Part shown: positions 7,076 to 31,945 of the stretch, in pieces | Layout of the letters: each line of letters opens with the position of its first letter | How positions within the stretch are numbered: the first letter of the stretch is position 1 | Source: Hericium rajendrae | Lineage: Eukaryota; Basidiomycota; Agaricomycetes; Russulales; Hericiaceae | Reading direction: 5' to 3' | NCBI GenBank assembly: GCA_033439255.1 | Contig: CM065886.1 | Coordinates: 2,046,001 to 2,110,000 of the forward strand | Length of the DNA stretch: 64,000 bases | Notes under the pieces: generated by a model | Told to the model about the DNA's origin: nothing | The model's database searches: none | Seen by the model: only the letters and a program-made list of their open reading frames with translations | Made by a program: the position numbers and the translations under genes

Positions 7076-7078
7076 AAA

Positions 7079-9535: not shown

Positions 9536-9666
9536 TGTAAGGACTGACTCAGATTGGTGTGCCACAATGTAACGCCTACGCCAAAAGGGCGCAATGTCAA
9601 GCTTGGCTTGACATCTGGCACACGGTATATATACACTTCTAAGTCATGAAGGACCAATTCATGACA
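9536..9666. repeat. 131-bp LTR-like terminal direct repeat, left
   Basis: Begins TGTAAGGACTGAC and ends ATTCATGACA (TG..CA). It contains GGTATATATACAC, a TATA-like box. It matches 31815-31945 over its full length with one difference that I see (GGGCGCAA against GGGTGCAA). Just inside it, the minus strand reads AAAAGAGGGGATGA, a candidate polypurine tract, which would make this the 3' LTR of a minus-strand element. Confidence 0.82.
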
Positions 9667-9889
9667 TCATCCCCTCTTTTAGGACACTCGCCCCAGAGTG
9701 GAAGGTATAGTATACCCTGGCCCCAGAGCCCATTCAGTACTAATTCCTGTATGGGAATGGTGAGCCAAACTGACACCGTCGCATTCTAGATTGGTAGTAT
9801 GGCCAGAATGACAATCTTGATTATCATACTGCATTGCCCGGGAATGTTTGCTTATGCCCCTATACCTGACAGTTAGTTACCATGCAGTA

Positions 9890-11255
9890 TTGTCTGGCCA
9901 AGTATACCATTTCTGCAATCGAATATGCCTGGCCAAGCACAAAATATGCCTCAGCCTACCGTGGCATATTGCGGCATATCAGTATGCTTGGCCAATATCC
10001 AATATGCCGCAAGGCTGCATGACCTTATGATTGGCCAATGTGCATATCCTTTCTGCACCAACATGCCGCTATGGTTGACCAACATCCCATATAATTATAC
10101 GCTACCATTCTGGCTTGATTGGCCAACCTCACATATCTTTAACTGCGGCATGCCTCTGCGGTTGGCCAACGTCCCGTATATTCATACGGTGGCATTCCGG
10201 CTTGGTTGGCCAACGTCGCGCTGAAATAACTCAACCATGCCGCCATGGTTGGCCAATGTCCTACTGTATTTGACTCAACCATTCTGGCTTGGCTGGCCAG
10301 CGTCTGATATTATATACCCCACCATTGCGCCTTGGTTGGCCAGCCTCTGACGTATTTTACCGCGGCATGCCGCCATGGTTGGCCAAACACGTACATCCTG
10401 CCTGCATCATCATCCCGCTATGGTTGGCCAACATCCGAAGTACTATACCATACCATGTGACGTTGGTTGGCCAACACAAATATTGGTTCTTCTGTGTCAT
10501 GCCCGCATGATTGGCCAATGTCAGACATGGTTTACCGCACCATGCCCCTACGGTTGGCCAACATATGAAATAGTGTACCGTACCATGCTGGTATGGTTGG
10601 CCAATGCGGACATCCTGTCTGTGTTGTCATGCTGCTATGGTTGGCCAACTCGCATATTCTCTCTTCAGGACCATGCCCGCATGGTTGGCCAACAGCCGAA
10701 GATACTATTATACCGTGTGACATTGGTTGGCCAACGCACGTATTATCTCTTCTGTACCGTGGCCGCATGGTTGGCCAATGTCTGACTCACTTTACCGCGG
10801 CATGCCCCTATGGTTGGCCAACATCTGACGGACCGTGCTATACCGTGCGACATTGGTTGGCCAACCCACATGTTCGTTCTCCTGTACCATGCCAGCATGG
10901 TTGGCCAATGTCTGACTCACGTTACCGCGGCGTGCCCCTATGGTTGGCCAACATCTGACGGACCGTACTATACCGTGCGACATTGGTTGGCCAACCCACA
11001 TGTTCGTTCTCCTGTACCATGCCAGCATGGTTGGCCAATGTCTGACTCACTTTACCGCGGCATGCCCCTATGGTTGGCCAACATCTGACGGACCGTACTA
11101 TACCGTCCGACATTGGTTGGCCAACCCACATGTTCGTTCTCCTGTACCATGCCGGCATGGTTGGCCAATGTCTGACTCACGTTACCGCGGCATGCCCCTA
11201 TGGTTGGCCAACATCTGAAATAGTATACCGTACTATGCTGGTATGGTTGGCCAAC
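9890..11255. repeat. left arm: 43-44 bp tandem array with TTGGCCAA core
   Basis: About thirty copies of TTGGCCAA (a perfect 8-bp palindrome, usually TTGGCCAAC or TTGGCCAAT) are spaced every 43-44 bp from about 9990 to 11250. From about 10800 three of these make a 130-bp higher-order unit (starts near 10801, 10930 and 11060). Each third unit also carries TACCGCGGCATG. The array translates in several frames into repeated MVGQ../GWPT.. peptides, but these are artefacts of periodicity. Confidence 0.9.
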
Positions 11256-11439
11256 ACACATTATAGATTGCACATGCTCATTTCTTAGCATACTACATAC
11301 AATGTCTATTTACCGCTATTTCACGCCACACTGCCATACCTACATTGGTTGGTCAGCCATGAACTCACCACTGCTCGTATGGATGCTCTACATCAACAGG
11401 GAGGTGATGCTGGTGGTGACCGGCTCCTCGTGTTGTACC

Positions 11440-12060
11440 GCAATACGAGCGATGCTACAACCTTATCCAGAAGACCGTACCCCATGCCCGTAACATCCCC
11501 AAGCAGCCACGTCCCGTGATTCTCTGCGTACCTCTGGTCGTCATTCGTTCCATTGTATGCTCATATGGACTTGTATCGCAGACCGAGTGCATGCGTGCTA
11601 ATGTACTATGCTTCCCAGGTATGCCGCGGCATACTTACAGCGTATGCCGCGGTTGATCTCTGGAATGTACAGGAATACGAGCGATGCTACAACCTTATCC
11701 AGAAGACCGTACCCCACGCCCGTAACATCCCCAAACAGCCATGTCCGGAGATTCTCTGCATATCTCTGGTCGTCTGTGGACTTGTATCGCAGACCACGTG
11801 CGTGCGTACTAATGTACTATGCCGCCCATGTATGCCGCGACATAATCTCAGAATATGCCGCGGCCTAGCTCCAGAATGTACAAGGATACAAGTGATGCTA
11901 GAACCTTATCCAGAAGACCGTACCCCATTCCTGTAACATCCCCAAGCAGCCACGTCCAGAGATTCTCTGCGTATCTCTGGTCGTCTATGGACTTGTATCG
12001 CAGACCACGTGTGTGCGTACGAATGTACTGCATGGCTAATATATGCCGCGGCATAATGTG
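11440..12060 (+). repeat. left arm: three tandem 210-230 bp repeats
   Basis: Units starting at about 11441, 11673 and 11886. Each contains CGAGCGATGCTACAACCTTA (or a close variant), then CCAGAAGACCGTACCCCA, a CACGTCC/CATGTCC block, GGACTTGTATCGCAGACC, and ATGCCGCGGCAT or a degenerate form at its end. The right arm carries only two units (29100-29470, inverted). Confidence 0.85.
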
Positions 12061-12551
12061 GACCAATCTCATACAGATGCAATGAGTGGCAGTTCGGAGT
12101 TTGACGAACATTCAGGAGCCCGGCCTCATTTACTACCTTTTGATATATGTGTTGCATTTGTTTTCGATTTCAGAAATTGCAGCGTCTGCACTTTCAATAT
12201 CGTCTGATCTGTCTTGATTCTATGCTCTCAACGACTTGAAGTGCCCATAATATGTTTCGACAATCCCCACAGATGCCGCCTCAGCTGCCGCGGCATTCGT
12301 ACGGTCTCTGTCTGGCTTGCATGTAATTTGGAACACATTGTAGGAGGCTGTCCATGTACTAATTGAAGGAATACAGTTTCCGTCTATGCCGCGGAGACTT
12401 CTGTATAGCGTATCCATCCCCATGTCGTACAATCATTATAGAATGCCGCCAATGTTGTTATCATTCACGCGGCATTTTGCTGGTATATGAACCTCAATCT
12501 CTGATATAAAGTATATCTACCCTACAAGAATACTAAGATACGGATAGCCAC

Positions 12552-13698
12552 CTAGTACTTTTCAACTGCCATTCGGTAGCTATCCCGTGCATCCTCTAGG
12601 TAACTCTTCATTCTCTCATGGCCTTTCGCTAACGTTCGGAAGAGGTTTAATTCCGTCTCGAACCGCGCTGCTTCCGCTGCCATGACCTGCTGAGATACCA
12701 TCATACCGACAGATCCCGGATGGAGGCGACGGGACGTGCTGAGATATCGGTGAAACGGGAAGTCCTGTGATATTTTGACCATCAGCTATAGGGACAGTCA
12801 CTCATCTCAAGTTAAAACGCACCTCGACCAATGGTGGCGGACTGCTACTATCCTGTTGGCCAGAAGAGAGGCATCATTAACATCTCATCACACATCAGCA
12901 CAAAATGTCCGCACCTCAGCCTGTTCAGTAGCCATGATTACCGGTCCATCACCTCCCTCCACCATTCTCTCCTTTCCCTTTCCCTTACCGGATACCTGGA
13001 TTAATTTAGGACTTAGTATGTTGGCCGCGGTCATAGCCATAGTACATACCGATCCCGCGGGACCGCCTACTCCAGCCTTCGCAGGTGTCGCGATGGCATT
13101 ACGACCCGCCTCGCACTGCACATCCGGGCTTATGCCATCATCACGAATGACACCGCTGATCGTCGTTTTGGTAAGCGCAACCGCAGCCGATATGTCCCCT
13201 GGACCTCGCGAGGCATATCCCACCCCATCCGCAGATGCAGACTTCGGTAAATCAGTTTAAATTCAGGTAGAATGGGTTGACAACATACCTCCTCACCCAG
13301 AGTAGGACTACCGCATATGTCCATAAACATGCCCTCCATCTCCCGTAGCTCGTCCATTGCTCCCTGAGAAATATCAGCAACCAATTTCCCAGGGCTCGCA
13401 CCCTACTCACCTTTTCAACTTCCTGGACATCGGACCCTGTGCGCTCGTGAGCCACATTCATAGTCGGCGGATCAAGGACACCGCAGAACATGTCCTCCAT
13501 CGCCTGAATGTCATCAGGATCTCCCTGCCCGCTATAAGCGTTGAAATCCAATGCTCTAACAATAGCACTCACCTGGTCCCCGCGTGCTGCCTGGCCTGCG
13601 GGCATATGGTTCTGCGGGTTGTCAGAATACATATCCGCATCATGTTCAGACTCCTCAGCGAGTCCTACCATGAACGAATCCAGGTCGTCAGCGTTCAT
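12552..13698 (-). CDS. element cargo gene C, unknown function
   Basis: Five exons by my reading: 13411-13698, 13289-13363, 12915-13241, 12823-12852 and 12552-12785. All junctions are GT..AG and in phase, giving 317 aa. The protein starts MNADDLDSFMVGLAEESEHD and is acidic at the N-terminus. A middle basic patch, GKGKGKERM, could be a nuclear localisation signal. The C-terminus is a predicted helix rich in E, K and A ending ..YRMAVEKY. No known domain recognised. It is divergent from the Zn-cluster gene, with 143 bp between the two starts, so the pair may be co-regulated. Confidence 0.62.
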
Positions 13699-13841
13699 TG
13701 TAGTAGAGAGTCAACAGTGACACCAGCGCCAATCTACGCGAGTTCACCGCGCGGCGCGACGGTCACGTGATCTGGCTCTCACTTCCCCGCGGACGCGGCT
13801 AAGTCGACATCCTGTCCCACTCTCACTTTGCACTCACCACC
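13699..13841. promoter_or_regulatory. shared divergent promoter of gene C and the Zn-cluster gene
   Basis: A 143-bp CpG-rich interval between two divergent start codons. It holds CACGTG at 13764-13769 (the E-box recognised by bHLH factors in fungi) and CGCGCGGCGCG just upstream. Being so short, it most likely drives both genes. Confidence 0.5.
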
Positions 13842-16317
13842 ATGTCATCCCCCTACACCCCACTTGAAAAGGATGTCATGCGCTGTGCTCTTCGTGTCCT
13901 CCTTGCCCTTGGTTCTCTAAAGCACCGGGACATTATCAGCAGGGATGAGTGGGAGCGACGTTTCACTGCGGAACAAGTACGTTTTCAGTTCTTAACTTCA
14001 TATGCTGCTGACCACGTTACGTCTCTGCAGAAATCTCTAGCACAGGCATTTCTGGCCGTGCAACAAGCCGGCGAACGCAAGATAATCCCGCCGCTCGTCA
14101 TCAGCTGGATGCTTGAGATGGTAGATGCCCGCCGCATGTCCCGGCCAGTGGACTTCGCTTCCATCTCCTCTGCGGATTCCCGTCTCAAGGAGGAAATGAT
14201 GGGGCACTACCACTCTGAGTTGTGGCCAACAAACTACCATGATCTCGACGATTCCCAGGGCGGCAGTGTGCTCGAAGGTGGGTGGTGGTTAGAGCTAGGT
14301 GCGTCGGTATTCGGTCCTGCATCATATTCAATCCATTGATGTATTGTTAGATTGTAATGAATCCCCAGTTTCCATTGCATCGTCATCCGACCATCCTGCT
14401 GGTCGTTCCTCCACTCAGACCACCCGCCCCGCCGCCGTACCTACTGCGAAACCTCCCCAGCCTGATCCTGAACGTCGCCAACCCCCACGACCTCGGCCTA
14501 AGGTTGTGCTCCAGCCCACGAAGAATGGCGTTCGCATCCAAATCCCTGCAGATGATGCCGCCGAGGTCCAAGAGCAAATTGATCGCAACCGCGCGTGGGT
14601 AGAGGCTTCTAAGACGCCCTCAAGGCCTGCAGAGCATGTCCCTGCCGCGCCGACCCCACCAGAGCCCCGCCGAAGCAAGCGCCGTGCGGAAGCCATGGCC
14701 TCTGATGACAATGCCTTACCCGATGCCGCCCAACCAAAGACAAAGGCGCAGAAGACGAAGAACGCGCCCGCATCCAAGAAGGCTGCACCAACGAAGGCTG
14801 GGGCCAGCAAGACCACTTCCGCCTCGAAGAAGCCAGCAGCAGGCAAGACCGCTGCGAAGCCCCAAAAGGGCGGACGTGGCCGCAAGAATGCAGCGGCGAC
14901 TAGCCAAGAAGTCCAGCAGTCGCAGGCCATTGAGGACGCCAGAGAGCAGGAGGAGAACCAGCAGGGAGATCAGGGTGTGGAGAGCGAGCAGCAGCAAAAT
15001 GAGGACCAGCTTCCTCCACAGGTAAGTCTGTAATTTGTTACCATATTCTTCCAATGCTCACATATACCTTTGCTCCAGCGGGTATTCACAGCTGACGAGC
15101 TTCGATACATCAAGCAGGCCAAACTGGTAGCGGTACGCTTGCAAATTTCATTGTTACTTTATCATAAGCAATACTGATGAAGGTTTCAAATATCTTAGCT
15201 GGATTCCTGCGAGCGCTGCGTAACGGACCAGAAGCCTTGCTTCCCCAGGGGCCCATGCAACGCCTGCCTCGCCTGCAAGGGCCTCAAGCACAAATGCTCC
15301 CACCGGGCCCAAGGCGCGGGCAGCGGGAATAGGCGTAACTGGGACCCAGAGGACTACTATGATGTGCTCTGGCGGCATGCAGCTGGGCCGATGCCCAAAT
15401 GGCCCCTGGACCGCTCTGTCGACTGGGAACCTGAGGTGCAGGGTAATGTCTCATCATGGGGCTACTGGTCTGACGCAGCCTCGGCGACAGCTGCCGCAGC
15501 TCAGGCAGCCTCGGCTTCGAAGGCGGAAGCACAGCAGGCCGCGGTTACTCAGGCACCCGCTGACTTTGACGTCGACATGGAGGATGAGCCGCGTATGCCA
15601 ACGCCGCCAATGCAGGTCAACTTGGATGACCGTGCTCCTGGACCATCTCGGCGTAAGGACAAGGGCAAGGCTCCAGTGCGCGCCCAGGACCAACACTTCG
15701 ACGGTCCTGCACACGCTGATCCAGATCACCAGTCTGAAATTCCCCTGGATGTCACCCCTCCTCGCCGACCGAATCTGTCTCCCCATCCCCCTATTGCTTG
15801 CATTGACGATCCAATGCCGCAAGACCGGCGGGAATACGACCCACACTCCCAACAGCTGGTCGAGGATCTTGCCGCGGATATCAAGCGTATCCGCCTGCAA
15901 TTGGGCACGCACGAAGGTGTCATTCAAGGCATGGCCCATCTCTCCGCGGACGTGCAACGCCTCTCCGAGCGAGTGTCCAGCATTGACACCACACAAGGCC
16001 GCCATCAGGAGTCAGTGGAACAGCGACTCAAGGAGCATGAGGACCGTCTTCAAAACATTGATAGGGGCCTCACCACACTATCCAGCAACCTGCACACCGA
16101 CATCTCCGACATGTCCTCCAGGATGGCCTCCCGGTTCGAAGAGCTGCGTGGCATGGTCAACGTGGCCCCGCAACAAGTTCCGGTTCCCGCGGGACTATTT
16201 GGTGGGCGGTTTAGCACGGCTGCGGCGGTTCAGTGGGGTGGAGCTACTGATGCAGACCGCGGCAATGCTGGGGCCTCATCCAGCCAGCCTAGCACAGGTT
16301 CAAAACCTGCCGAGTAG
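13842..16317 (+). CDS. Zn-cluster, basic-tail and coiled-coil protein (element cargo)
   Basis: Five exons: 13842-13976, 14031-14298, 14369-15021, 15079-15132 and 15199-16317, all GT..AG and in phase, giving 742 aa. Residues 1-135 form a helical N-terminal region. Residues ~140-340 are low-complexity P/K/A/E with GGRGRKN (AT-hook-like). Residues 374-403 hold seven cysteines spaced C-x2-C-x6-C-x5-C-x2-C-x2-C-x6-C. That is close to the fungal Zn(II)2Cys6 pattern with one extra cysteine. Residues ~560-690 are a long heptad-like coiled coil. Likely a nuclear DNA-binding protein that dimerises; whether it is the element's regulator or a transposition accessory factor is inference. Confidence 0.72.
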
Positions 16318-17048
16318 GTATATCCATGCCCGCGGCATCCGGCGGCATTTTCACTATTATTTCATGAGTCCTGCATGCTCTTCGCCCTTGTACTTAAATA
16401 GATAATGAATGATCAATCTCTCCTATCTAAGATAAAATGTGTGACCTGAGATGAATGATTCTTGGGCTTAAGACAGTTATATAACCCGTTTCAAGTCTCG
16501 CATGGCAATATCTGTGTATACAACATCCTGAACTGCGACCAGATATGAGTATCTATGATATGATGCACCAGAGTCTACATCAAATGGAGTATTGACCCCG
16601 CCTTTCTCCATGTTCCACACACTGCTTTGAATCTCCGCGGCATGCTACTGACAACCTAAGGACATCGCCCGACAGCACACCACTGATTTATCATGCCGCG
16701 GCATATCTATTGACGTAGCCTATGCTCCTGCACCCCGCTTCGGGACTTCCAGAGCCATCACCCTCCTCTCTATATCCTACAGCCCACTGTAAATGTTGTT
16801 CGCGTCGGCCCACGGCCGCGTGAGGCATGTTGAAGCCCCTAGCGTTCGGTATACAATGCCGCGGCATATCTGTTGAAGGATGCCGCATGCCGGCGAGAGT
16901 CCAATGGGCTCTCTCAAGCTTTCCTGCCACCGGATGGACGTGCTGCAGGGATCGCAACCTCCACTGTCAGCTTCGGATTGCGGCCAGAACGTGGGGGTTG
17001 TCTACATTGTGAATCAGCAAGACGCCTGGGTGCTGACAGCAGCATAAC
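16318..17048. other. intergenic region between convergent cargo genes
   Basis: 730 bp between two convergent stops. It holds two perfect ATGCCGCGGCAT palindromes (16693 and 16856) and one half-site (16636). No coding signal is convincing. Confidence 0.5.
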
Positions 17049-20000
17049 TTACTCAAGGGCCTTAGCCGTCGGCCGCTTTCTCCTAGACCCTTCAACAATG
17101 TTCTCATCCTGCACTTCAGGCTTTCTTTGCCGCCTTGCAGGCGGCTTGATTGGGGGATGCATCGAGCTCGGCCCAGCCTTTGGGGGACTATCAGGAGATC
17201 GAAGACGTTTCCCTAGCAGATGGGGGCCTCCACGATCATTGGCGGCATTGCTGGCCCTCGGGACATTGGCGTTCTGTCCAGAGGATGGAGCCTGCTGCCC
17301 GGATAGTTTAGCATCATTGCCGCATAAATAAAGAGATAATTAATGTTGCCTACAGTTTCGGTAGTGCCTTCCGGATCATCTAACGCCTTGCAGGCTTTCG
17401 TAATTGCAGGGATTATCAGACTCGCAATGTAAGCGAAAGCAAGAGGTGATCCGTTCAAATAGCCAGGTCCTGAGCTCTCCTCGTCCGCGTCCTCTGCGAA
17501 TTGGCCTTCATGCATATCATGTATAGCACTACCCATGGCCAAAGCAAAGGTTTCCATGCTTGTCCTAGATCGGACACTCCTCGACCCGTTCTGCGTTGGT
17601 GCAGAAAGCCAGGGCTTCGTACCAATCCATGTGGTGAGGTCCTCTAGCCCCTCCTGCCTATGAACTTCAGCAGGAAGCCACATTTCCTGGCTCTCCCAGT
17701 CTTTCCAGTGCGTTCTCCAGCTTGCTGGAAGTGGAATTAGTGGCGCAGCACCCGTTCCCTAAGTCCAGTTAGTGTTTGAAACTTTGAGATGTCATAATAG
17801 CATCACTCACTCCTTGCATCTGCGCAATCAGCTCCAGAAGCTTGCAATACTCCTTTTCATTGGATAACGAGGCCAGGTATTGCATGCGGAGTCGGGTGTG
17901 GCGTCGTGTGTCTGCAGGGCATTCCAAAGTGGCTGGACGATTACCGCGGCGTTGCGGAGCACCACCTGCAGCAGCGAGAGACCCTCCGGCAGGGCCGCCT
18001 GAGCTCCCAGTCCACCCAGGAGGTCTCTCCAGCTCCTGTAGGCTCTGGTCTGCCACTTCGTCCACCATGATCAACACCTCATCCTCCTCATCAGTCGATG
18101 GAATTCCAGACTCCTTCTGCTGTCCTTTGGTTTCCTTTGCCTTCTTCCCCTTCCCAAGCTTCACCAGATTAGCCTTCGTTATGGTCAGTCGTTCCTGATA
18201 GGCTTTATTCTTCACCTCCTTCGCTTTCGTCTTCTTTGCCTCCCTCGCCTTTGCCTCCCTCGCCTTTGCCTCCCTCGCCTTTGCCTCCCTCGCCGCCTCC
18301 CGCCTCGCCTCCCTCGCCCGCCTCCCTCGCCTCCGCCTCCCTCGCCTCCGCCCCCGCCTCCCCTCGCCTCCCTCGCCTTCGCCTCCCTCGCCTCGCCTCC
18401 CTCCCTCCCTCGCCTCGCCTCCGCCTGAGCCTCCGCCTTCGCCGCGGCCTTCGCCTGAGCCTTCGCCTGAGCCTTCTCCCGGATGGTCTTTGCCGCCGCG
18501 GCTTTGGCCTTCATGGCGTTCGCCTTGGCTGCAATTGCCTTGGCCTCCATCGCCTTGGCCGCCTTAGTGGTTTTCGCTTTTGCCTGCGTGGCATTCTCCT
18601 GAGCCACCTGCGCCTCATGCTGTTTGGCCAGGGTCTGCGTTGCCGCCTTTGGATGCTGTGCGTCACTCTCCAAGTCTATATCAGACGGGTTTGCCTCCTC
18701 TACTTCTGCTTCGGAGTCCTCCTCTGCTGCCGCAGTAATGCCGCTGTAGTCCGCATCAGATAGAACATCCCCTGCCTTGGACGCATCAGTGTCCGAAAGG
18801 TGGACGATGTCTTCACCACCTAGTGACGACGAGGTAAGGTCCTCATCGGTGTCGTAATCCCTTGGGGGCCTGTCCTTGCCTTTCCGCCTGATTGCAGGTG
18901 GCGGGGTGTCTTGTACATCTGGTGACGATGGGGTCTGGTCATCCTGGCTGTCGTAATCAACGTGCGCCCGTTCCTTGCCTTTTCCCAAGGTCGCCGTCGG
19001 TGTACGGCTTTGCGCGGAGGTATTGGAGAACCCAGCGGCATTCCGGGACGCTGTTGGGGGCCTGTCCTTGCCTTTCCGCCTGATTACAGGTGGCGGGGTG
19101 TCTTGTACATCTGGTGACGATGGGGTCTGGTCATCCTGGCTGTCGTAATCAACGTGCGCCCGTTCCTTGCCTTTTCCCAAGGTCGCCGTCGGTGTACGGC
19201 TTTGCGCGGAGGTATTGGAGAGCTCCGCGGCATTCCCGGACCCTGTGGAGGGGGACATGGCATGGCGGGCCTTCAACGCGGCTTTCCTGCCTTTAGCAGG
19301 AGGTCCCTGCATTGGAGTAGGAGCTTTGGCAAAGCATTGAACAGTGTCATCACCGTCGACCTCCGGAAAATAATCCCACTTGAAGGGAATCAAGCCTTCG
19401 TCTATGCGGTCGTGCCAGTGCCTGTATACATCTTCAATGCAATATTGGTTCCACTTTGACGGGTGAATCCAGAATTGGTATCCTGGCGGGAAGCAATCCA
19501 GGGAGAAGTAGTCGCTGTCCTCGGTAAAAACCAATCCCCATGGCACCGCGCCCTTCACTTCACCTATTGCAATATCTGATCTACATGTCAGCTTCTGCTC
19601 CACGAGATGATACTCTGGCTTACGGAAGTGTGCAGTCATCCACTGAGTGATCAAGGCCTTCCGCTCTTGCCTCTCCAGCTTATCGAATACCTCTAGCGAT
19701 GGCAAGATCGGCCAGCCTTCATCGTCATAATCCAGTTCCGGGAGGTCTAGGCTTTCGCTTGGAGCATCTGGAGCTTCGCAAAGCAGGGGATCTGAAGCAT
19801 GGCATCAGCGCTTGCCAGCCAGATATATTGAAGTACTCACCTGATGCCTTTGTTGACCACTCCGTCCATTGTGTAAATATGCCGGTGTCTGCCCAGTTCG
19901 GATTTGCCTCGCTGAACCCCTTTGTCCCAGACAGGTCTTCTGTATAGTCTTGCCTACTCGGGGTTAACTCAAGTCAAATGTTAAAGCAGCAAATGACTTA

Positions 20001-20785: not shown

Positions 20786-21640
20786 TAGGAAGGGGAAATG
20801 TAGGGGATGGCCAGAAAGGACATGCGACCTTGAACGAATTTTTGCAATATAATTCGTCCGTCTTCCATCACGCACCGGCCAGGATCGAATTGGGAACCCA
20901 TCCGATCACGCCATGGCAGGTATCGAAATACCGGTAAGGCAACCAACAGGGCCAGCCGAAATAATCCTTGCCGAACGGAGAGCAACGGGCATGTTGCTCC
21001 ATTCGAAAGAAGACAGGTTTCCCGTTGTCACTCGCTACAACAATCACATGCCCATCGCTTCATTTGCCAACTAGTACTGAGATTGAGCATAATGCTAGCT
21101 TGATACACATATTCCATGCGTATATCATGTATTTCTGGGAAGAGAAGTCAGTAGGATCTTTGAATGTGTCTGTGGATCGATAGACGCAAATAAGAAGTCC
21201 GGCGCGCCAAACATCTGGGCACGGCCCCCACCGGATAATCTATCCACAATCAATCGGTTACTCGTCATAATACATAATACAGCTATCAAGTCCGGTCCGA
21301 AGTCCACAATCGTGATGCGAGAAAGCATTAATGAGCCATATACACAATTGTGTAGTATCAAAGACTGTGGAGAATGTTGGGTTATTGTGAAGTCTATAGT
21401 GTACAATTCCCGAAACATAGATTCATGCTGATTGAGTCAACCGCTGGACAATAGAAAGGTACAAAAACAGCGGTAGCTTCATAGGACAATAGAATGACAT
21501 TGGCAATTCCAAATTGATGGGACAATAGAACAATGTAATATGTGGACAATGGAAGCTCGAGTACGATCATGGCTGCCTCATTGTCCCTGCAAGTATTTCA
21601 GTCTGCGGTATTCCAGAGACAACTATACCACAGAGTCATC
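20786..21640. promoter_or_regulatory. divergent intergenic region upstream of TET/JBP gene, with ACAATAG iterons
   Basis: 855 bp between the divergent starts of the charged-protein gene and the TET/JBP gene. Close to the TET/JBP start the motif GGACAATRGAA occurs four times on the plus strand, starting near 21446, 21484, 21520 and 21544. ACAAT is the core bound by HMG-box proteins, so this could be a control region, but no binding factor is shown. Confidence 0.5.
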
Positions 21641-23032
21641 ATGTCTTCCGCACCTACATCCCGTGCGGCATCTTCATCTGCTTGTCCTTATGCCTCAGCC
21701 ATGGCAGAGTATCTCTCCCACCGATTTCGCAATGTGCTCAGACAACGTCAATGCGCGGCATTGAACCGGGCTGTGCCTGGTGATATTGACCGTCCTGCTA
21801 TGACAATACCGATTACTGTTTTATCTGAGCTCGACTTCGCCGCGGATATGCTTGTCACCGCCTTTTTGGATCGTGGTATGTAATTATGTGTATGCGGCAT
21901 TCTCCCCCATTGCTTAATTCCCATTAGTTGTGATCAACTGGGACATGGAGCGCTATGCAGAACGTAAACGAGAGCAGGACTCTCCAGTATTTCTGCAACG
22001 ATATCCGCGGGTATCAGGACATCCCGAGTATACCAAGCCCTGCATAGGCATTGATCGGCATGGACGGATTTTCTTCTGGTACTTGCCTGGTCTTATATCC
22101 AAGGAGCGCGAGGTATTGTCTTTTGCAGGTACATACAATCAAAACCACTAATTTCGTTCACAGATCAAGATGGCGAGGCAACAGAACATTTGAACGCACA
22201 TGTTCGAAGGTCCAATCCATCTCGGAAAAAGTCTGGAAGCACCAAGGATGGCACATGGAGGGAATCGCCCCAGCTCTTTCATCCTGCAGAGGCATGTAGC
22301 CGATTCACCCCAGGGACGGTGTCTGTGTCTCCTGCATGGTTTCAGCAGGCGCACACTGTGTGTATCATATTTCCCAATTCATATCTATGTCTCCAGCTCA
22401 TGCACTGGTTCATATAGGGGCCCAACGATGACTTGTTTACTTCGCCACTGATAAACCCGGCAAAACGCAACATTGATGGCGCGAACTGGGTGGCTGACAT
22501 TGCAGAGTCCGCTGCGCTATTCAGCGCTATTCTAAGCGTTGTTCATCCAGAGCTCTACGATGCCGCGGCATCCGTCATGAAGGAGCTCAAGGGCATTGAA
22601 CGACTTGCTCCAGCCCTTCAGCAATGGCCATCTGTGTTCAACGGAGTTGCGGTCATATCTAACCGGCAAACACCGGCTCATCGCGATGGGCAGAGTCGTG
22701 CCTCATGGTATGACATTCTCTGCACCATCGGTCCCTATCAGAGCGCAACGTTTGCGCTTCCAGGAACTGGCCTAGAACTGAATTACAAACCCCGCACTGT
22801 CATAGCAGTGTCTGGCAAAGCCCTGGAACATTCAGTCTCAGACTTTGTTGGGGAGCGCATTTGTTACGCATGGTTCATGAGAGATGCCGTGCATGATCGC
22901 ATTGGGCAGGAGGCAGCCGGATGGATGCGGGTCAGCAGGTATGAGACCATGCACGCTGAGGCGGCTGTTGGCGATTCCGAAGATGATCTGGAGCAATCGG
23001 TGCTGGATCTCCGGAGATTGGCGTTATCTTGA
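21641..23032 (+). CDS. TET/JBP-family 2-oxoglutarate/Fe(II) dioxygenase
   Basis: Four exons: 21641-21875, 21928-22128, 22164-22357 and 22418-23032, all in phase, giving 414 aa. An in-frame ATG also exists at 21542. The C-terminal half holds the family signature: PAHRDGQSRASWYDIL with iron ligands H298 and D300, then LPGTGLELNYKPRTV, GKALEHSV with the third ligand H348, and GERICYAWFMR with R357 as candidate 2-oxoglutarate anchor. TET/JBP enzymes oxidise 5-methylpyrimidines in DNA, and in mushrooms they are expanded together with KDZ transposons. It lies 165 bp upstream of, and in line with, the transposase gene. No inactivating change seen. Substrate (5mC or other) is not deducible. Confidence 0.88.
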
Positions 23033-23196
23033 GATCATATGGACATCTAGAATATACCACGGCTTCTCGGAAGCATGTCATTTGCCACCATTTGTTCCTT
23101 AGTAATGAGTGTAAAACTGAGGGTCCTAATCGTTCAAACATTGTGGCGTTATTATATGCGCCTTAACACCAAGGCCCATGCACCATCAGTCCCAGC

Positions 23197-26100
23197 ATGG
23201 CCCGCACCAAGCCGGGCAGGAATAAAGTACGATATACTGCACCCCTCCATGGCAATGTCCATGTCACCCTGGTTGTGCAGAAGACGTCCCGCGGGTGGAA
23301 CCAAGTCGGAATTGAAAAGGCTGGATCACGTAGACTGCTGAGCGAAACCCCTTCTAACCTCACTCCTACGCCTGACAGGGAGGGAAGTGGACCATCCAGG
23401 GATGCTGTCTTCAATGCTCTCCCAGGGCCACGTACTGCCGACTATGAAGTCATGAACAACGACTTTGTAGAGGAGGAGGACGGGATTCGTGACCCATTAG
23501 CAGATGTACATCACAAGGTGGGTAGGATAACCTCGGCATGCCGCAGGACACGGTGCTGATGCCGCGAGCAAGGGACAGCATGATTACTTGCGCGAATGGC
23601 TACCCAAACGTTCAGACTACATCCATGCCATGTTGGATACCGAGTGCCCGCCAGTTGATACCCAGTGCGTTACCTGCAAGAGTCAAGAAGGTGTCTGGCG
23701 ATGTATGGACTGTCTAGGGCAGATGTTCGAATGCACTCCCTGTTTCTCTAAACGTCATACGGCCTTGCCATTCCACCGCGTCGAACGCTGGACTGGCGAA
23801 TTCTTTTCTCCATCATGGCTTCGCTTCGCCGGTGTCAAGATTCATGTAGGCCATTCAGGACATCCTTGCCCTTATGCCAGTCGAGAGGACGTTGAATCAA
23901 GTGTGGATCCGGAGGAGGACGCTGAGGAGGATCCACCAATTGACGATGAGGATCCTACTGCACCATGGCCTGCTGATGATGAGGACCTGCTGTCCTTTCA
24001 GACTGACGTCTTGCCGAAGAAGGCCCGTGATGCCGACGGGAATCCAATTCTATGTATTGTGGACTCGAGTGGTGTGCACCGCATGCCGGTTGTCTGGTGT
24101 CAATGTCCTAATGCAGATCCCCTCCCCCTGCAACTCTTCCGTATGCAGATGTTCCCATCTACATTCCACTCACCTGAGACGGCATTTACCTTCCGCGTTC
24201 TGGATGACTTTCGGCTGGACAACCTGGAATGCAAGACGACGGCTTACCATTTCTATCATAAGTTGCGAAGGCTCACGAATAGTGCATTTCCGTCCAGTGT
24301 ACCAGTATGTGTCTGTCTCGACGTGGGCCATCACCATGCTGACTGTAATCCAGGATAGATACCGGGAGTTGTTGCGGGTTGAGCGGCAATGGCGGGATAT
24401 GAAACTCAGGAAGTGGTTTGGTATGGGTCACGACCCAGAGGATTCAGAAACACCAGGATGCCGCGCGATGTTCTGCCCTACCTGCGCACAGCCAGAATTC
24501 AATCTACCAGATGACTGGAAGACAGCTGACCCCAGACGGTAACTCGCTCCTCACATGGTGCATGACCTATGGCTTACCGTCCTGCATGTAGTTGGATTTT
24601 TCTCAGGACGTTTGTGATGGACGGCAACTTTGAGTCCACAGGAAGCAAGATGCGCAGACCGGCCAACGACGTCCAGCTTAGCGAAGGGGCCGGATTCATG
24701 GTTGGACAAGCAGAGTACAAGAAGCACTTGAAGGCGGCTAATGACCAACGCGAGGTGCGCATCATTTGACCATATCACCAGAACACCGTTGAGGTATCCC
24801 GCGGCATATAGCGATCCACCTGCAACGAGCACCGGGCGGTCAATCGTGTCAATGCTGATCGCCATCACGTTGAACATACCGGAATTGGAGCAACGGCTTG
24901 CTGCCATGGGTGCTTCTACCCGCACTCTACAGTTGATTTTCAGAAGGGCGAGCGGTTGGTCTATGATTTCAGCCATGTGGAATGAACATGCTGACCAGTG
25001 TAACAGACAAATGAACATGGACTACTCCGCGTGTCAGGCCATTAACTTTAGAAGCAAAGGTATAGAAATCGTCATGAAAATATACGACATCATATGCCAG
25101 TGGCGCAAGAAATTCCGAGAACGCGTGGCTAACAGTGAATTCCTATCTCTTCCTGATAGCATCGTCGAGATGAAGGCTGCGATGCGATTGGACTGTTTCA
25201 TGTGCATGGGCACAAGGATGAATGCATCCCAGCATTTTCACCGAATTATATCATCGGTGCACGGCAATTCGATGGTGAAGTTGTCGAGACGCTCTGGGCT
25301 CCACTGAATGAGATTTCTAGAAGCACCAGTGGCATGTCGACATCCCACCGTCGGGAAGTTCTAGACGACCATATGAATGATTCAAACTGGAAGAAGCTCA
25401 TTGGAATGGGTACTGATCTGAATCGCCATATCCCGTTTATGCCGCTGACCCACTATACAGTGAACTACCTATCGCGGCGGTATCGGGCTGGAAAGGTAGA
25501 ATTAGAAAAGGCAATCACGGCATTCAAGAGTATCAATTCCACGGTCTCACGGGATAAACGGGATGACTGGGCGAACGAGGAGGAAGAGGCACAAAGCAAA
25601 CGGGAAGATGATCCCATGGTGATGGTCAAAATCTATGACACTACGGTAAAGAAAGGTACTGTGGTATCCTGTCCATAACCTGGAGCCAGTACTAATATAT
25701 TATATGTTGTGGAAGGGCCGACAAGAGCCGATATCCTCGTCAGGCTAAACAAACTAGAATTGGACCGTGGACAGGGCCTTGGCGCTGCGGCATGGATAAC
25801 ACTGGGCCTCCGGATTCAAGAGACACAGTTCGTTGTTTCACCTGACGTATTTGATTTGATCTCAACCTAAATCTCAAACCGCAGGCTGTCTATTGTATCG
25901 CTTGTCCGCAAAGTGGGGTCGAGCCCTACCTCGGCACAAAAGAATGATCTCGAGGACAAACGAAGACGTCTGCAATCCCGTGTGACGACCTTTGAGCGTG
26001 CTGCATGCCAGTTTTTACCCTACGACATCGATACGGCTAATCACGGCATCCCTCTCTCCGCTGGAGATGGAGATCAGTTTGATCACGTTGGAGAAGAAGA

Positions 26101-26979
26101 CGAGGACAATGATACCCACGCTACTGCAGTACCCCGTAGATCTGGCGGTTACATCCCCATTGAACGCGTGGCTATCAGCCTACCATCTCGTCTTGATAAG
26201 GAGGTTCTCCGTGTGCCTCAGATGAAGACATTGGTGGAAGCTGAACTGGAATTGCGGGAAGGCCAGGCCAATGATGCATTGCAAAGCTTACGACTAGCCT
26301 TGGGATACAAGGCCTATGTTTTCAGGACTGATGTGCGGCAGGCCAATAGTCAACGCAAGAAGACACGGGCATGGGAGGGTGTGACCTCTATCGAAAGCAC
26401 CGTTCAACACCAGGCACGTGTGTATTCAAGATGTAGAGAGGCTATGGAAGATCTGGGTGCTAAGGAGGACATGCTCGAGAGGTTCCAATCTCTCCTTCCA
26501 GAGCATCTGAAGGTCCGCACTGCTGTCCTGGATCCATCGGTCAGGGGTCTACGCAATTCAACTCTGCCTTGGTTCTGGACGATGGATGTCTCTGGTGATT
26601 CACTTGAAGGCGAATGGCTTGCAGACTGTAAGTCGGACATTCAGTCTTTATCAGAGACGTATGCTGCAACATGATTAATTAATTCACACTATTCTCAGTC
26701 CACCGAGTTCAGTGGCTTCGTGCACGGGCAAGGATGCATCGTTGGCATGAGGAGATGGTTGTTCTTCCATTTGAAATGGATTGGACTGTGAGAGGATTTC
26801 AGAAGCGTGCAGATGATTGGGGGAGCAGGGTGGAGAAGGCCGGCGAAGAGGGGTTGCGCGGCCATGCGGCATATGGTGCACGGCAGAAGGCGATGTGGAA
26901 GGAGTTTTCTGGAAGCGCAGACACAATGTTCAAGTCTGTGTTAGGGGATGATGAACGTTCTAAATATGGTCTAGACTAA
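23197..26979 (+). pseudogene. KDZ-superfamily transposase with CxC2-like domain, frameshifted
   Basis: Exons: 23197-23521, 23547-24304, 24354-24538, 24607-24754, 24812-24954, 25007-25655, 25716-25827, 25885-26627 and 26699-26979. Family signatures in order: a cysteine cluster from QCVTCKSQEGVWRCMDCLGQ to CTPCF (CxC2-like), MDGNF (first catalytic Asp), RSTCNEHRAVN, GIGATAC then STVDFQKGER, RQMNMDYS, YDIICQW (second Asp), FHVHGHKDEC, and FDGEVVETLWAPLNE (acidic third position). At 25178-25187 TGCGA is duplicated in tandem. One copy breaks the frame between KAA and IGLFHVHGH and leads to a stop at 25307. With one copy removed the exon total is divisible by three (1112 aa). Intron 1 as drawn is only 25 bp, so that junction is doubtful. 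Confidence 0.85.
25178..25187 (+). other. 5-bp tandem duplication (TGCGA x2) breaking the transposase frame
   Basis: TGCGATGCGA lies where KDZ proteins read ..AAIGLFHVHGH... Reading through it changes the frame, whereas one TGCGA copy keeps the conserved motif in frame. It could be a footprint-like replication slip or an assembly error. Confidence 0.8.
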
Positions 26980-27081
26980 TGTACATGTACTTGGCTGGAC
27001 ATACTATGCTTCACACAAATGTGGATGGATTCTCACTGTGATCACATACCGCGGCATATCAGAGATCATTCGAACTGGCCT

Positions 27082-27988
27082 TTAGTCATGCAGAGACCTA
27101 TTCAAGGTTTGCCAGGCCCCGCCTTCATCCTGCATCCAATCCTCCATATGTTGCAAGTCGTCGAGGATGACGGAACGCTCCTTGCACCATGCATCGATGT
27201 AATTGGACAGATTCTCCGCCACAGATACAGCCTGATCCAATGCATAGTAGATGCGGTCTGCACGTCGCACCTACCGCGGCATCAGCAAGATAGCCAATGG
27301 CATAGGAGGTATGTACATACCGATTCCACATGGGCACGTACAGATAGGGCAAGAGTTCCTAAAATATCAGGGGGCGATGGTGTACGCTGGGCTGCCGTCT
27401 GCCCTTGGCCTCCATTACCCCTACAGTCTGTCAGCAGTGTTCTGTGACGCATACCAGACAGGTTCCGCTGACCTTCCGCTCTGCGCAGGTCTGTGCGATT
27501 GACCCGCCGTCCTAGTTGTGGTCCGGAGCTCCTCCCTTATATCGTCTGGCCACCACTGGGAGCGGGGAAGCCACCACCGTGGCATGTATCGCATAATCGG
27601 GTCACCCCGCGGGAATGCGGGAGCAGGTGGCAGCGCTGGATGATGACCTTCGGATAGAGCACGACCAAGGATATCCAGGTGGGTCCCAGTATCCCGTAGC
27701 AACGTAGGAATGATAATCGGCGTCTTGGCGAACTCCGCGAATCCAATGATGACAGCCGCGGCATTCTGAACACATGCTCAAATGCTGTTGCATTATGTGG
27801 TCTATGCAACGTACCAGTTCATTTTGTACTGCATTGAATGCGTACCAGTACTCATATGTGCCGGGGGGAGTGGAAATCGTCTGCATTGCATCGTGAATTC
27901 GCCATGCGATTTCGTTCAGTATGGCCTGTCCAAGCGATCCAAAAGGTGGTCTGGAAGTAAAGGCAGTCGTAGCATTAGGGGTGGTCAT
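27082..27988 (-). CDS. element cargo gene B, unknown function
   Basis: Start MTTPNATTAFTSRPPFGSLG at 27988. Exon 1 runs to a GTACGT donor after ..YEYWYAFNAVQNEL. Exon 2 (from about 27770) begins NAAAVIIGFAEFAKTPIIIP and continues to ..PVWYASQNTAD. A short exon, ELLPYLYVPMWNR, precedes the final exon RIYYALDQAVSVAENLSNYI, which ends at 27082. Helical and W/Y-rich; no recognised domain. It converges with the transposase gene, 102 bp apart. Introns carry CCGCGGCAT half-palindromes. Confidence 0.5.
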
Positions 27989-28233
27989 TGTTAGCTCACA
28001 ATACTTGGCACAGTATTGAGTGAAGGTGAGTAGTTGAGCGGCGAACGACTGGTATCGATTGCCGCCCAAGGGGATTGCAAGCACGTGCAGCGCACAGACT
28101 ACGTCATATTCCCGCGGCATGGAACAACGGCTTCAGGCAAAACATCAAAGGATAGCATAACATGCGAAATACGATGCGACAGGTTCTACTGAGTCGACCC
28201 ATGAAGGAGACAAAATCTTCCAGTCTTATGCAG

Positions 28234-28840
28234 CTATTCCTGGTTCTCCCTCTTCATCCTCGTGACGTCCTGCAGAGCATCATTGGCCAATGTCCGCTTC
28301 AGCTGCCATCGGTCCAATTGGTCCTTTATGGAACCAGCTACATATTTATGAAGATGTTCTGCCTGGGCGATGTCGTCGAAGACCTTCGCACGCGCAGCAA
28401 GAATGTCTGCGGGTGGCGTGGGCGGTCCTTCGGCATATGTGCCACTCTAAAAATGACTCAGGTTGAGTTTTTAAATGGACGGAAGACTGGTGCCTACCTG
28501 CGTGAGAAGTGCGGGAACATATCCCAATATCCCTCTTTCATTGGCTGTGTGAGCATCAACTGCCCGGCGAAATTTCTTCGACATGCGAGTACGGATACGG
28601 AATGGATCAGGTTGCCCATCAGCCTGATGGAGTTTGAGCAACCCAATATCCCGGGATAAATCCACCTTGGTCGTAGTGAGCAAACAGAATAAGTCAAGGA
28701 TATATTCGATATACCCATTGTGCTGCTGTCATCTGGGGATCCACATCGGTGGAGGCAATCTGCAAGAGTGCCTGCTCCACGCTTGCGGAGATGGCTGAGA
28801 TATTTGGGCGGGTACAAGCCCATGTATTGTCAAGAGACAT
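28234..28840 (-). CDS. element cargo gene A, unknown function
   Basis: Three exons with in-phase GT..AG junctions: an exon starting MSLDNTWACTRPNISAISAS (28840; an in-frame ATG at 28900 is also possible), an exon VDLSRDIGLLKLHQADGQPD.., and an exon SGTYAEGPPTPPADILAARA.. ending ..DVTRMKRENQE at 28234. Roughly 165 aa, helical, with a C-terminal basic/acidic helix of coiled-coil character. No family recognised. It points the same way as gene B, about 250 bp upstream of it. Confidence 0.48.
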
Positions 28841-29099
28841 GTTGGAGTCGATAACAGATCCGGTATCACGATTGCAATCACACTGGCGCCTGTGTCCCAC
28901 AACGTCACATGACTTTCATTTACGTGTTTGGAGTCACGGGGCATTGTTCTGGCAGACGGGCGTCAGAAGCATGGTGGCATGCCACGGCATATTGCCCACC
29001 TATGCCGCGGCATGATTCCGGACTAGCCTGCGGCATATGGTAGAATTACGGTCAGGCATACACTGGCGGCATAGTACCCTAGTACATACTGAGGTGCAT

Positions 29100-29470
29100 T
29101 AAGATACAAGTCCATATGAGCCTACAACGGAAAGAATGATGGCCAGAGGTACGCAGAGAATCATGGGACATGGCTGCTTGGGGATGTTACGGGCGTGGGG
29201 TACGGTCTTCTGGATAAGGTTGTAGCATCGCTCGTATTCCTGTACATTCCAGAGATCAACCGTGGCATATGCTGTAAGTATGCCGCGGCATACCTGGGAA
29301 GCATAGTACATTAGCACGCATGCACTCGGTCTGCGATACAAGTCCATATGAGCATACAATGGAACGAATGACGACCAGAGGTACGCAGAGAATCACGGGA
29401 CGTGGCTGCTTGGGGATGTTACGGGCATGGGGTACGGTCTTCTGGATAAGGTTGTAGCATCGCTCGTATT
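29100..29470 (-). repeat. right arm: two tandem ~231-bp repeats
   Basis: Inverted counterparts of the 210-230 bp repeats at 11440-12060, with unit boundaries near 29470 and 29239. The right arm has two units where the left has three. Confidence 0.82.
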
Positions 29471-29669
29471 GCGGTACAACACGAGGAGCCGGTCACCACC
29501 AGCATCACCTCCCTGTTGATGTAGAGCATCCATACGAGCAGTGGTGAGTTCATGGCTGACCAACCAATGTAGGTATGGCAGTGTGGCGTGAAATAGCGGT
29601 AAATAGACATTGTATGTAGTATGCTAAGAAATGAGCATGTGCAATCTATAATGTGTGTTGGCCAACCAT

Positions 29670-31390
29670 ACCAGCATAGTGGTATACTATTTCAGATGTT
29701 GGCCAACCATAGGGGCATGCCGCGGTAACGTGAGTCAGACATTGGCCAACCATGCTGGCATGGTACAGGAGAACGAACATGTGGGTTGGCCAACCAATGT
29801 CGCACGGTATAGCACGGTCCGTCAGATGTTGGCCAACCATAGGGGCATGCCGCGGTAACGTGAGTCAGACATTGGCCAACCATGCCGGCATGGTACAGGA
29901 GAACAAACATGTGGGTTGGCCAACCAATGTCGGACGGTATAGTATGGTCCGTCAGATGTTGGCCAACCATAGGGGCATGCCGCGGTAAAGTGAGTCAGAC
30001 ATTGGCCAACCATGCTGGCATGGTACAGGAGAACGAACATGTGGGTTGGCCAACCAATGTCGCACGGTATAGTACGGTCTGTCAGATGTTGGCCAACCAT
30101 AGGGGCATGCCGCGGTAAAGTGAGTCAGACATTGGCCAACCATGCCGGCATGGTACAGGAGAACGAACATGTGGGTTGGCCAACCAATGTCGGACGGTAT
30201 AGTACGGTCCGTCAGATGTTGGCCAACCATAGGGGCATGCCGCGGTAAAGTGAGTCAGACATTGGCCAACCATGCTGGCATGGTACAGGAGAACGAACAT
30301 GTGGGTTGGCCAACCAATGTCGCACGGTATAGTACGGTCCGTCAGATGTTGGCCAACCATAGGGGCATGCCGCGGTAACGTGAGTCAGACATTGGCCAAC
30401 CATGCTGGCATGGTACAGGAGAACGAACATGTGGGTTGGCCAACCAATGTCGCACGGTATAGCACGGTCCGTCAGATGTTGGCCAACCATAGGGGCATGC
30501 CGCGGTAAAGTGAGTCAGACATTGGCCAACCATGCGGCCACGGTACAGAAGAGATAATACGTGCGTTGGCCAACCAATGTCACACGGTATAATAGTATCT
30601 TCGGCTGTTGGCCAACCATGCGGGCATGGTCCTGAAGAGAGAATATGCGAGTTGGCCAACCATAGCAGCATGACAACACAGACAGGATGTCCGCGTTGGC
30701 CAACCATACCAGCATGGTACGGTACACTATTTCATATGTTGGCCAACCATAGGGGCATGGTGCGGTAAATCATGTCTGACATTGGCCAATCATGCGGGCA
30801 TGACACAGAAGAACCAATATTTGTGTTGGCCAACCAACGTCACATGGTATGGTATAGTACTTCGGATGTTGGCCAACCATAGCGGGATGATGATGCAGGC
30901 AGGATGTACGTGTTTGGCCAACCATGGCGGCATGCCGCGGTAAAATACGTCGGAGGCTGGCCAACCAAGGCGCAATGGTGGGGTATATAATATCAGACGC
31001 TGGCCAGCCAAGCCAGAATGGTTGAGTCAAATACAGTAGGACATTGGCCAACCATGGCGGCATGGTTGAGTTATTTCAGCGCGACGTTGGCCAACCAAGC
31101 CGGAATGCCACCGTATGAATATACGGGACGTTGGCCAACCGCAGAGGCATGCCGCAGTTAAAGATATGTGAGGTTGGCCAATCAAGCCAGAATGGTAGCG
31201 TATAATTATATGGGATGTTGGTCAACCATAGCGGCATGTTGGTGCAGAAAGGATATGCACATTGGCCAATCATAAGGTCATGCAGCCTTGCGGCATATTG
31301 GATATTGGCCAAGCATACTGATATGCCGCAATATGCCGTGGTAGGCTGAGGCATATTTTGTGCTTGGCCAGGCATATTCGATTGCAGAAA
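29670..31390. repeat. right arm: 43-44 bp tandem array with TTGGCCAA core
   Basis: Inverted counterpart of 9890-11255, with the same 43-44 bp spacing. The 130-bp higher-order unit recurs from about 29692 to 30490. Between matching landmarks (TTACCGCTATTTCACGCC at about 29603/11308 and CCCGGGAATG at about 31450/9838) the right arm is about 390 bp longer, that is three extra 130-bp units. Confidence 0.9.
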
Positions 31391-31606
31391 TGGTATACTT
31401 GGCCAGACAATACTGCATGGTAACTAACTGTCAGGTATAGGGGCATAAGCGAACATTCCCGGGCAATGCGGTATGATAATCAAGATTGTCATTCTGGCCA
31501 TACTACTATGACTACACTAGGACGTTGGCCAACGTGAGCTCACCAATCTAGAATGCGACGGTGTCAGTTTGGCTCAACATGGTCTTACGGAAAATCAGTA
31601 CTGAAT

Positions 31607-31814: not shown

Positions 31815-31945
31815 TGTAAGGACTGACTCAGATTGGTGTGCCACAATGTAACGCCTACGCCAAAAGGGTGCAATGTCAAGCTTGGCTTGACATCTGGCAC
31901 ACGGTATATATACACTTCTAAGTCATGAAGGACCAATTCATGACA
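31815..31945. repeat. 131-bp LTR-like terminal direct repeat, right
   Basis: Full-length match to 9536-9666 in the same orientation, TG..CA ends, followed by CTAAT at 31946-31950. Confidence 0.82.

What the first reader, a model, noticed from the sequence alone, without database searches (positions are those of the whole stretch)
9731..31606. A 21.9-kb KDZ-TET mobile element with seven genes between giant inverted arms
Seen directly: inverted arms of about 2.0 and 2.5 kb, and between them a KDZ transposase, a TET/JBP dioxygenase, a Zn-cluster protein, a WFRN-motif protein and three unknown genes. KDZ transposons and TET/JBP genes are known to co-expand in mushrooms. A complete element with defined ends and this cargo set is a concrete unit that may not have been described. 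The inference is that the cargo forms one module: transposase, DNA-modification eraser or editor, and DNA-binding regulators.
Basis: partly seen in the sequence, partly recalled or inferred. Interest (0 to 1): 0.95.

Follow-up and report, generated by a model that had tools for sequence, protein, structure and literature searches.

The report
Seven-gene KDZ-TET transposon, giant arms
This is a 21.9-kb jumping element of a fungus (probably a mushroom former) that carries a transposase gene, a gene for a TET-type enzyme of the kind that removes methyl marks from DNA, and five companion genes between huge repeat-filled inverted arms; because related elements in the same genome keep the same gene set, the seven genes look like one inherited machine rather than accidental cargo.

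Summary
The element runs 9726-31612 (21,887 bp), flanked by a perfect 7-bp target duplication, with inverted arms of about 2.3 and 2.6 kb. Seven loci of this genome have hits to all seven genes; four others differ from the window copy by 0.14-0.31% in the core. Empty sites were found for two of three copies queried. The order A(-)B(+)C(-)TET(+)KDZ(+)F(-)G(-) recurs in two diverged families here (TET about 71% and 52% identical), about 24 kb long, with similar ends and 7-bp duplications; five genes tested between two families give dN/dS 0.16-0.45. So the genes form a module. B has a Zn2Cys6 pattern; C is weakly HMG-like. The arms are arrays of TTGGCCAA every 43-44 bp; another family has other motifs. 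In two families the core lies in both orientations relative to the termini. Of 68 derived C>T changes, 58 are at CpG, so copies are probably methylated, giving TET a substrate. TET-bearing Kyakuja transposons are published; the seven-gene module, giant motif arms and core flipping were not seen in the papers searched. Targeted self-demethylation is my boldest reading (about 0.3) and is inferred; other species could not be searched.

The parts
9726..31612 (+). complete KDZ/TET transposon, family 1, window copy (21,887 bp)
   Evidence: copies and termini compared
9719..9725 (+). left 7-bp target-site duplication GGCCCCA
31613..31619 (+). right 7-bp target-site duplication GGCCCCA
9726..12057 (+). 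left (A-side) inverted arm, terminus GAGCCC, 27 TTGGCCAA motifs mostly 43-44 bp apart, inner 211-bp repeats
29015..31612 (-). right (G-side) inverted arm, terminus CATGTG (reads CACATG inward), 37 TTGGCCAA motifs mostly 43-44 bp apart
12552..13698 (-). gene A, about 285 aa, unknown
   Evidence: gene model; family 2 homologue; family 1 against family 3 z 6.2, 0 of 500 shuffles
13842..16317 (+). gene B, about 759 aa, Zn2Cys6 pattern; coiled coil suggested by weak Pfam matches only
15208..15297 (+). Zn2Cys6 cysteine pattern within gene B
16914..20785 (-). gene C, 'WFRN' protein, about 1133 aa, weakly HMG-like N-terminal region, conserved C-terminal domain
21641..23032 (+). gene D, TET/JBP dioxygenase, 407 aa, HxD, Ser at CcTET position 331, Asp at 337
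23196..26979 (+). gene E, KDZ transposase with CxC2 cluster; frame broken in this copy by a 5-bp duplication in the catalytic exon
27082..27988 (-). gene F, about 225 aa, unknown, conserved in families 2 and 3 (N-terminus taken from the open frame, rest from the model)
28234..28990 (-). gene G, about 188 aa, unknown, conserved in family 2, weakly in family 3
9536..9666 (+). left LTR of a TRIM-like element into which the transposon inserted (5-bp duplication CTAAT at 9531-9535)
31815..31945 (+). right LTR of the same TRIM-like element (CTAAT at 31946-31950)

Best explanation
This is one copy of a recently active, multi-gene cut-and-paste KDZ (Kyakuja-like) DNA transposon. Its seven genes form an inherited module. 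The KDZ protein with its CxC2 cluster recognises the ends and inserts the element with 7-bp duplications (by homology). The host methylates CpGs in the copies (inferred from CpG decay). The TET protein oxidises 5mC to keep the element expressed (inferred by homology to CcTET). The Zn2Cys6 protein B and/or the HMG-like protein C bind the palindromic arrays in the arms and either concentrate TET on the element or build the transposition complex (inferred). The long arms also recombine with each other, which flips the gene core relative to the termini, and with other copies, which rearranges chromosomes (orientations and shared flanks shown; mechanism inferred).
For: Copies and ends: seven loci have hits to all seven genes. 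Core differences from the window copy are 23-53 in about 16.9 kb for four copies and 254 for C18b. Perfect 7-bp duplications in W, C10, C11 and C1, family 2 (read from the printed flanks) and two family 3 copies. Empty sites for C1 (16 loci) and C11 (24 loci). Module: hits to all seven genes in family 2 and models for all seven in the C8 copy of family 3; C, TET and KDZ in family 4. dN/dS 0.16-0.45 for the five genes tested, two of them as pieces. Motif arrays: TTGGCCAA 64 times in the arms, 2 in the other 59 kb of the window; a spaced motif pair gives 95 forward and 102 reverse hits in the genome against 0 and 0 for the reversed control (the motif is palindromic, so the strands overlap). CpG decay: 58 of 68 derived C>T at CpG against 21.6% of C in CpG, p=8e-29. 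Core flips: W is opposite to C11, C10 and C1, and C8 is opposite to C14 in family 3 (gene positions).
Confidence: 0.9

Rival explanations
1. The arm arrays serve transposition only: the KDZ transposase or its helpers bind them to synapse the ends, as the Galileo transposase binds many sites in its long inverted repeats. TET acts non-specifically across the genome, and B and C are transposition helpers, so there is no targeted self-demethylation. (This is one of the two branches left open in the best explanation.)
For: Subterminal, periodic, family-specific motifs are typical transposase sites (general knowledge); Galileo precedent (PMC3688188, title and start of abstract in the listing). [quoted passage not shown] The share of CpG decay is no lower in the arms.
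Against: B (Zn2Cys6) and C (HMG-like) are DNA-binding-type proteins beyond the CxC2 transposase; C is present in all four families read and B or a B-like gene (in family 4 assigned by eye) too, more than cut-and-paste transposition usually needs (general knowledge).
Confidence: 0.45
2. B, A, F, G and possibly C are passengers (captured host genes) without a role in the element's life cycle.
For: No Pfam family hit for B, C or F, or for the single-exon pieces of C and F scanned (A and G were not scanned).
Against: All seven keep order and orientation between families whose proteins are down to about 30-55% identical, with dN/dS 0.16-0.45 in the five tested between families 1 and 2. Passengers would be lost or shuffled.
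Confidence: 0.06
3. The apparent core flips are assembly errors at the 2-kb repeats rather than real inversions.
For: Arms are near-identical beyond their outermost 36 bp, so an assembler could mis-orient the core.
Against: Arms of 2.0-2.6 kb are short for the long reads that a 19-contig, 46.8-Mb assembly implies (inference; the read type is not known to me); opposite orientations occur in two separate families among copies with clean 7-bp duplications.
Confidence: 0.12

Closest known systems
TET+ Kyakuja DNA transposons (Kojima 2025, PMC12730594; parts 1-5 of 7 and the figure legends read)
   Same: KDZ transposase plus AG-type TET/JBP gene, 7-bp target duplications, one terminus reading CA inward
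   Different: described as having CA..TG termini and no terminal inverted repeats (two Laccaria families), and no other Kyakuja-encoded genes are mentioned in the parts read; here the termini are GAGCCC/CATGTG, the inverted arms are over 2 kb with motif arrays, and seven genes are conserved. Its Table S1 and sequences could not be read
TET/JBP-KDZ elements of Iyer et al. 2014 (PNAS, recalled; not held)
   Same: association of TET/JBP, KDZ and, as recalled from its abstract, a divergent HMG-domain protein, which gene C may be
   Different: from recall only: no complete seven-gene element, arm arrays or core flips are remembered
VANDAL/VANC anti-silencing transposons of Arabidopsis (PMC5735166 abstract and section list; PMC10398659 passages)
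   Same: element-encoded anti-silencing, family-specific short motifs in tandem repeats of non-coding DNA
   Different: plant element; no TET enzyme is mentioned in what was read; here targeting is not shown
Galileo and Foldback elements of Drosophila (titles and starts of abstracts in the listing)
   Same: long internally repetitive inverted repeats, multiple transposase sites, chromosomal inversions by ectopic recombination
   Different: P-superfamily transposase; no TET gene or seven-gene module is mentioned in what was seen
KDZ1-3 of Cryptococcus (PMC12810828, passages)
   Same: active KDZ elements with inverted repeats
   Different: 9-11 kb, 139-241-bp inverted repeats, CxC1 not CxC2, 4-8-bp duplications; TET is not mentioned in the passages read

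Membership tests
KDZ transposon superfamily | KDZ transposase domain over Pfam cut-off | tested here: met
   PF18758 83.3 bits against 26.6; CxC2 89 bits against 27
KDZ transposon superfamily | terminal inverted repeats and target-site duplication | tested here: met
TET+ Kyakuja (Kojima 2025) | 7-bp target-site duplication (Zisupton and Dileera give 8) | tested here: met
   W, C10, C11, C1; F2 (printed flanks); F3 C8 and C14; not matched at C4 and C18b, untestable at C9b, whose one end is truncated, and at C18a, of which one end was read
TET+ Kyakuja (Kojima 2025) | AG-type TET: HxD motif, Gly/Ser at CcTET 331 and Asp at 337 | tested here: met
   alignment to CcTET; residue numbers from PMC12730594
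TET+ Kyakuja (Kojima 2025) | 5'-CA..TG-3' termini | tested here: inconclusive
   one end reads CACATG inward, the other GAGCCC (F1, F2) or GAGTAT (F3)
TET+ Kyakuja (Kojima 2025) | no terminal inverted repeats (stated for the two Laccaria families) | tested here: not met
   arms over 2 kb in F1 and F3, 234 bp in F2; hence 'Kyakuja-like', not filed as a member
TET+ Kyakuja (Kojima 2025) | transposase groups with Kyakuja in a tree | not tested
   no reference sequences could be fetched
active TET dioxygenase | oxidises 5mC | not testable with these tools
   catalytic residues present by alignment only
Zn2Cys6 DNA-binding proteins | C-x2-C-x6-C-x5-12-C-x2-C-x6-8-C spacing (recalled) | tested here: met
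   one match each in W, F2 and F4 at the B or B-like gene; none in the window outside the element; one further match in F3 is antisense low-complexity sequence and not counted. F3's B region has a looser form (x8) in one frame. No Pfam Zn-cluster hit
HMG-box proteins | HMG-box fold | tested here: inconclusive

The most novel reading that the evidence does not exclude
A self-contained epigenetic escape machine: an element that encodes its own 5mC eraser together with sequence-specific DNA-binding proteins that deliver it to arrays of the element's own palindromic motif, diverged families having their own motif-protein pairs, so that the transposon unmethylates itself but not its host or rival elements, and whose arms double as an inversion switch that flips the gene core.
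Probability: 0.3. Interest if true: 0.88.

Novelty: new variant of a known kind. Interest (0 to 1): 0.7.

Why it matters
TET/JBP genes have multiplied in mushrooms alongside KDZ transposons, and what they do there is open. This element turns the question into a defined unit: seven genes, exact ends, family-specific arm motifs, methylation-type decay, and near-identical copies. One can now ask whether B or C binds the arm motif and whether TET works on its own element or on the whole genome. The conserved companions A, F and G are candidate new epigenetic or transposition proteins. If targeting is real, it would be an independent counterpart of plant VANC anti-silencing and a possible source of sequence-directed DNA demethylases.

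Tried and rejected
Protein database searches for genes C and B were not sent because the shared database is off, so occurrence in other species could not be tested; all comparisons rest on one genome, whose species I did not identify ('mushroom' is inferred from the AG-type TET). Rejected: passenger cargo (conserved order and dN/dS); arms as a chance or assembly duplicate (same arms at other loci). A first gene-finder run with too low an intron penalty patched introns over everything and was discarded. The idea that the arms are protected from CpG decay found no support (614 columns of ten arms). A tree of six cores is star-like and does not say how often the core flipped in family 1. Empty-site search for the window's own TRIM site showed no hit among the 40 scored candidates of 150, which does not exclude one; the C10 join was not submitted (3 of 4 joins submitted).
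Full report
Observation. The window is C9:2046001-2110000 of a 46.8-Mb, 19-contig genome. Self-comparison confirms giant inverted arms, 1,468 nt at 98% plus 543 nt at 98%. Comparison with other copies moves the ends outward by a few bases: read inward, one end begins GAGCCC-ATTCAGTACT and the other CACATG-ATTCAGTACT. With these ends the window copy, C10, C11 and C1 are each flanked by a perfect 7-bp duplication (GGCCCCA, ATTCATT, GTTAGCT, TCACACC). C9b has one truncated end, C4 shows no matching flanks, and the left flank of C18b matches instead the flank of a partial copy (C18a) 243 kb away in the other orientation, as an inversion by recombination between copies would leave.

Copies and empty sites. 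I fetched eight loci with long stretches of the element; a diverged C17 fragment was not fetched. Seven of the eight have hits to all seven genes (C4 in pieces, broken by insertions); the eighth (C18a) keeps one end with F and G. Over about 16.9 kb of core, C1, C11, C9b and C10 differ from the window by 23, 31, 35 and 53 bases, C18b by 254. Joined flanks of C1 match 16 loci, and those of C11 match 24 loci, at 98-100% straight across the junction: unoccupied sites (40 of 150 candidates scored, three of four joins submitted, none scored for the window's own join). Ten of the 16 C1-type sites lie 10.4-10.5 kb from another TET gene, five lie 12.8-22.6 kb away and one has no TET hit near, so this copy landed in a repeated unit that mostly goes with another TET gene.

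Conserved module. Own-genome protein searches found two further families with the same arrangement. Family 2 (C2:128464-152702, 24.2 kb; same termini; duplication CTAGATA; 234-bp inverted repeat at 97%) has hits to all seven genes in the same order and orientation; its second copy has hits to six, none for C. The copy read is decayed: B is split by about 4 kb and C has an in-frame stop. Family 3 has eight loci with C-protein hits, seven of which also have a weak F hit (E about 2e-4) within 24 kb. The C8 copy, read in full (1192052-1215623, 23.6 kb, duplication CACGCTC), has inverted arms of about 2.2 kb and models for all seven genes in the same order. Family 1-family 3 similarity is clear for C, TET, KDZ and F (z 17 on the models) and weak for A (z 6.2, 0 of 500 shuffles), G (z 4.7, 1 of 500) and the B N-terminus (z 4.6, 2 of 500); shared position makes these weak matches credible. 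Family 4 (C14, 20 kb fetched, ends unknown) has C, TET and KDZ in the same arrangement and a gene that I judge B-like by eye elsewhere in a different orientation. Between families 1 and 2, dN/dS is 0.27 (A), 0.45 (piece of B), 0.23 (piece of C), 0.16 (TET) and 0.32 (F), with dS high (1.2-2.3), so these values are rough; E and G were not tested. The genes therefore appear to be kept by selection as a set.

Arms. The arms are arrays of TTGGCCAA, 40 of 64 within GTTGGCCAAC: 27 in one arm, 37 in the other, mostly 43 or 44 bp apart, with 2 in the remaining 59 kb of the window. A spaced pair of motifs gives 95 forward and 102 reverse hits in the genome (overlapping, as the motif is palindromic) against 0 for the reversed control; the listed places, a part of all hits, lie in family 1 copies or in a 6-kb relative with the same ends. 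The family 2 copy has the same octamer (17 and 9) at the same period; family 3 C8 has one, outside its arms, and instead other repeated words at 67- and 76-bp steps. Family-specific arrays next to conserved DNA-binding-type proteins fit either transposase sites, as in Galileo, or targets of an anti-silencing protein, as for VANC (abstracts, listing and passages).

Core flipping. The two termini differ in their outermost 36 bp; beyond that the arms are homogenised, with one further terminus-linked column, and nothing in the first 720 bp follows the core side. On the A side the window copy and C18b have GAGCCC, while C11, C10, C1 and C9b have CACATG; C4 is like the window. In family 3, C8 has CACATG and C14 GAGTAT on the A side, both with clean duplications (gene positions). 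So the core occurs in both orientations in two families. Crossover between arms is the simplest cause; exchange of only the terminal 36 bp, or misassembly, is not excluded.

Methylation signature. Among the five youngest copies, 58 of 68 derived C>T singletons are at CpG, against 21.6% of cytosines in CpG (p=8e-29; 93 singletons in all). Copy C10 alone has 37. Two stretches of two family 3 copies (13 of 22 and 3 of 4 differences) and the LTR pair of a retrotransposon in the window (6 of 8) lean the same way. This is the usual mark of CpG methylation of repeats, so TET has a likely substrate, but it is not specific to the element, and the arms show no lesser share (8 of 11 singletons in 614 columns).

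Mechanism and standing. Shown: a recent, multi-copy, 7-bp-duplicating KDZ transposon with a conserved seven-gene module, family-specific arm arrays and a core found in both orientations. Inferred: catalysis by KDZ, erasure of 5mC by TET, recruitment or complex assembly by B and C on the arms. I rate the identity at about 0.9 and targeted self-demethylation at about 0.3. Literature: TET+ Kyakuja elements are published (PMC12730594; parts 1-5 of 7 and the figure legends read). A search for the three KDZ names found 68 papers, 30 listed, and the other KDZ/TET/long-repeat searches showed no seven-gene or giant-armed KDZ element in the listings; passages were seen in PMC12810828, PMC9674265 and PMC7641404. 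Repbase, Table S1 of PMC12730594 and Iyer 2014 could not be consulted, so the novelty claim is limited to what was searched.

Noticed in passing
window 9531-9666 and 31815-31950: The transposon sits inside a TRIM-like element with 131-bp LTRs (99% identical), 5-bp duplication CTAAT and, by eye, a tRNA T-arm-like sequence between.
   Followed up: partly
window 2695-7899: LTR retrotransposon with 821-bp LTRs at 99% and an ORF at 3654-5546 (minus) that looks gag-like by eye; 6 of 8 LTR differences are CpG transitions.
   Followed up: partly
G000 C18:64674 and C18:307799: The right end of one partial copy and the left end of another share the 7-bp flank GGAAGGC in opposite orientation, as left by a chromosomal inversion through recombination between copies.
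   Followed up: partly
G000 C14:446617-452886, C2:780789-786933, C5:17967-23189, C3:3426622-3432132, C17:257498-263399: Five 5-6-kb relatives share at least about the terminal 60 bp (motif arrays seen at C2:781-786 kb); no KDZ hit among those listed, a cut list; probably non-autonomous, contents unread.
   Followed up: no
L038-L039 (G000 C14:1985001-2005000): A fourth, abundant TET-KDZ family: 19 loci with TET hits at 35-39% identity, 18 of them with a KDZ hit within 6 kb, a C-like gene and a Zn2Cys6 B-like gene; ends and full gene set not determined.
   Followed up: partly
window 25178-25188 and 26674-26684: Two short duplications (5 bp in a KDZ exon, 4 bp in a predicted intron) in the window copy, absent from the five other copies compared.
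   Followed up: partly
G000 C4:365999-427233: A family 1 copy spread over 61 kb, its B, TET and KDZ matches broken by long gaps, as insertions would leave, and without matching target duplications.
   Followed up: partly
G000 C17:348296-352592 and C17:395224-396805: Diverged fragments on C17 with arm-like (84%) and F/G-like (52-82%) matches, perhaps remains of an older copy.
   Followed up: no
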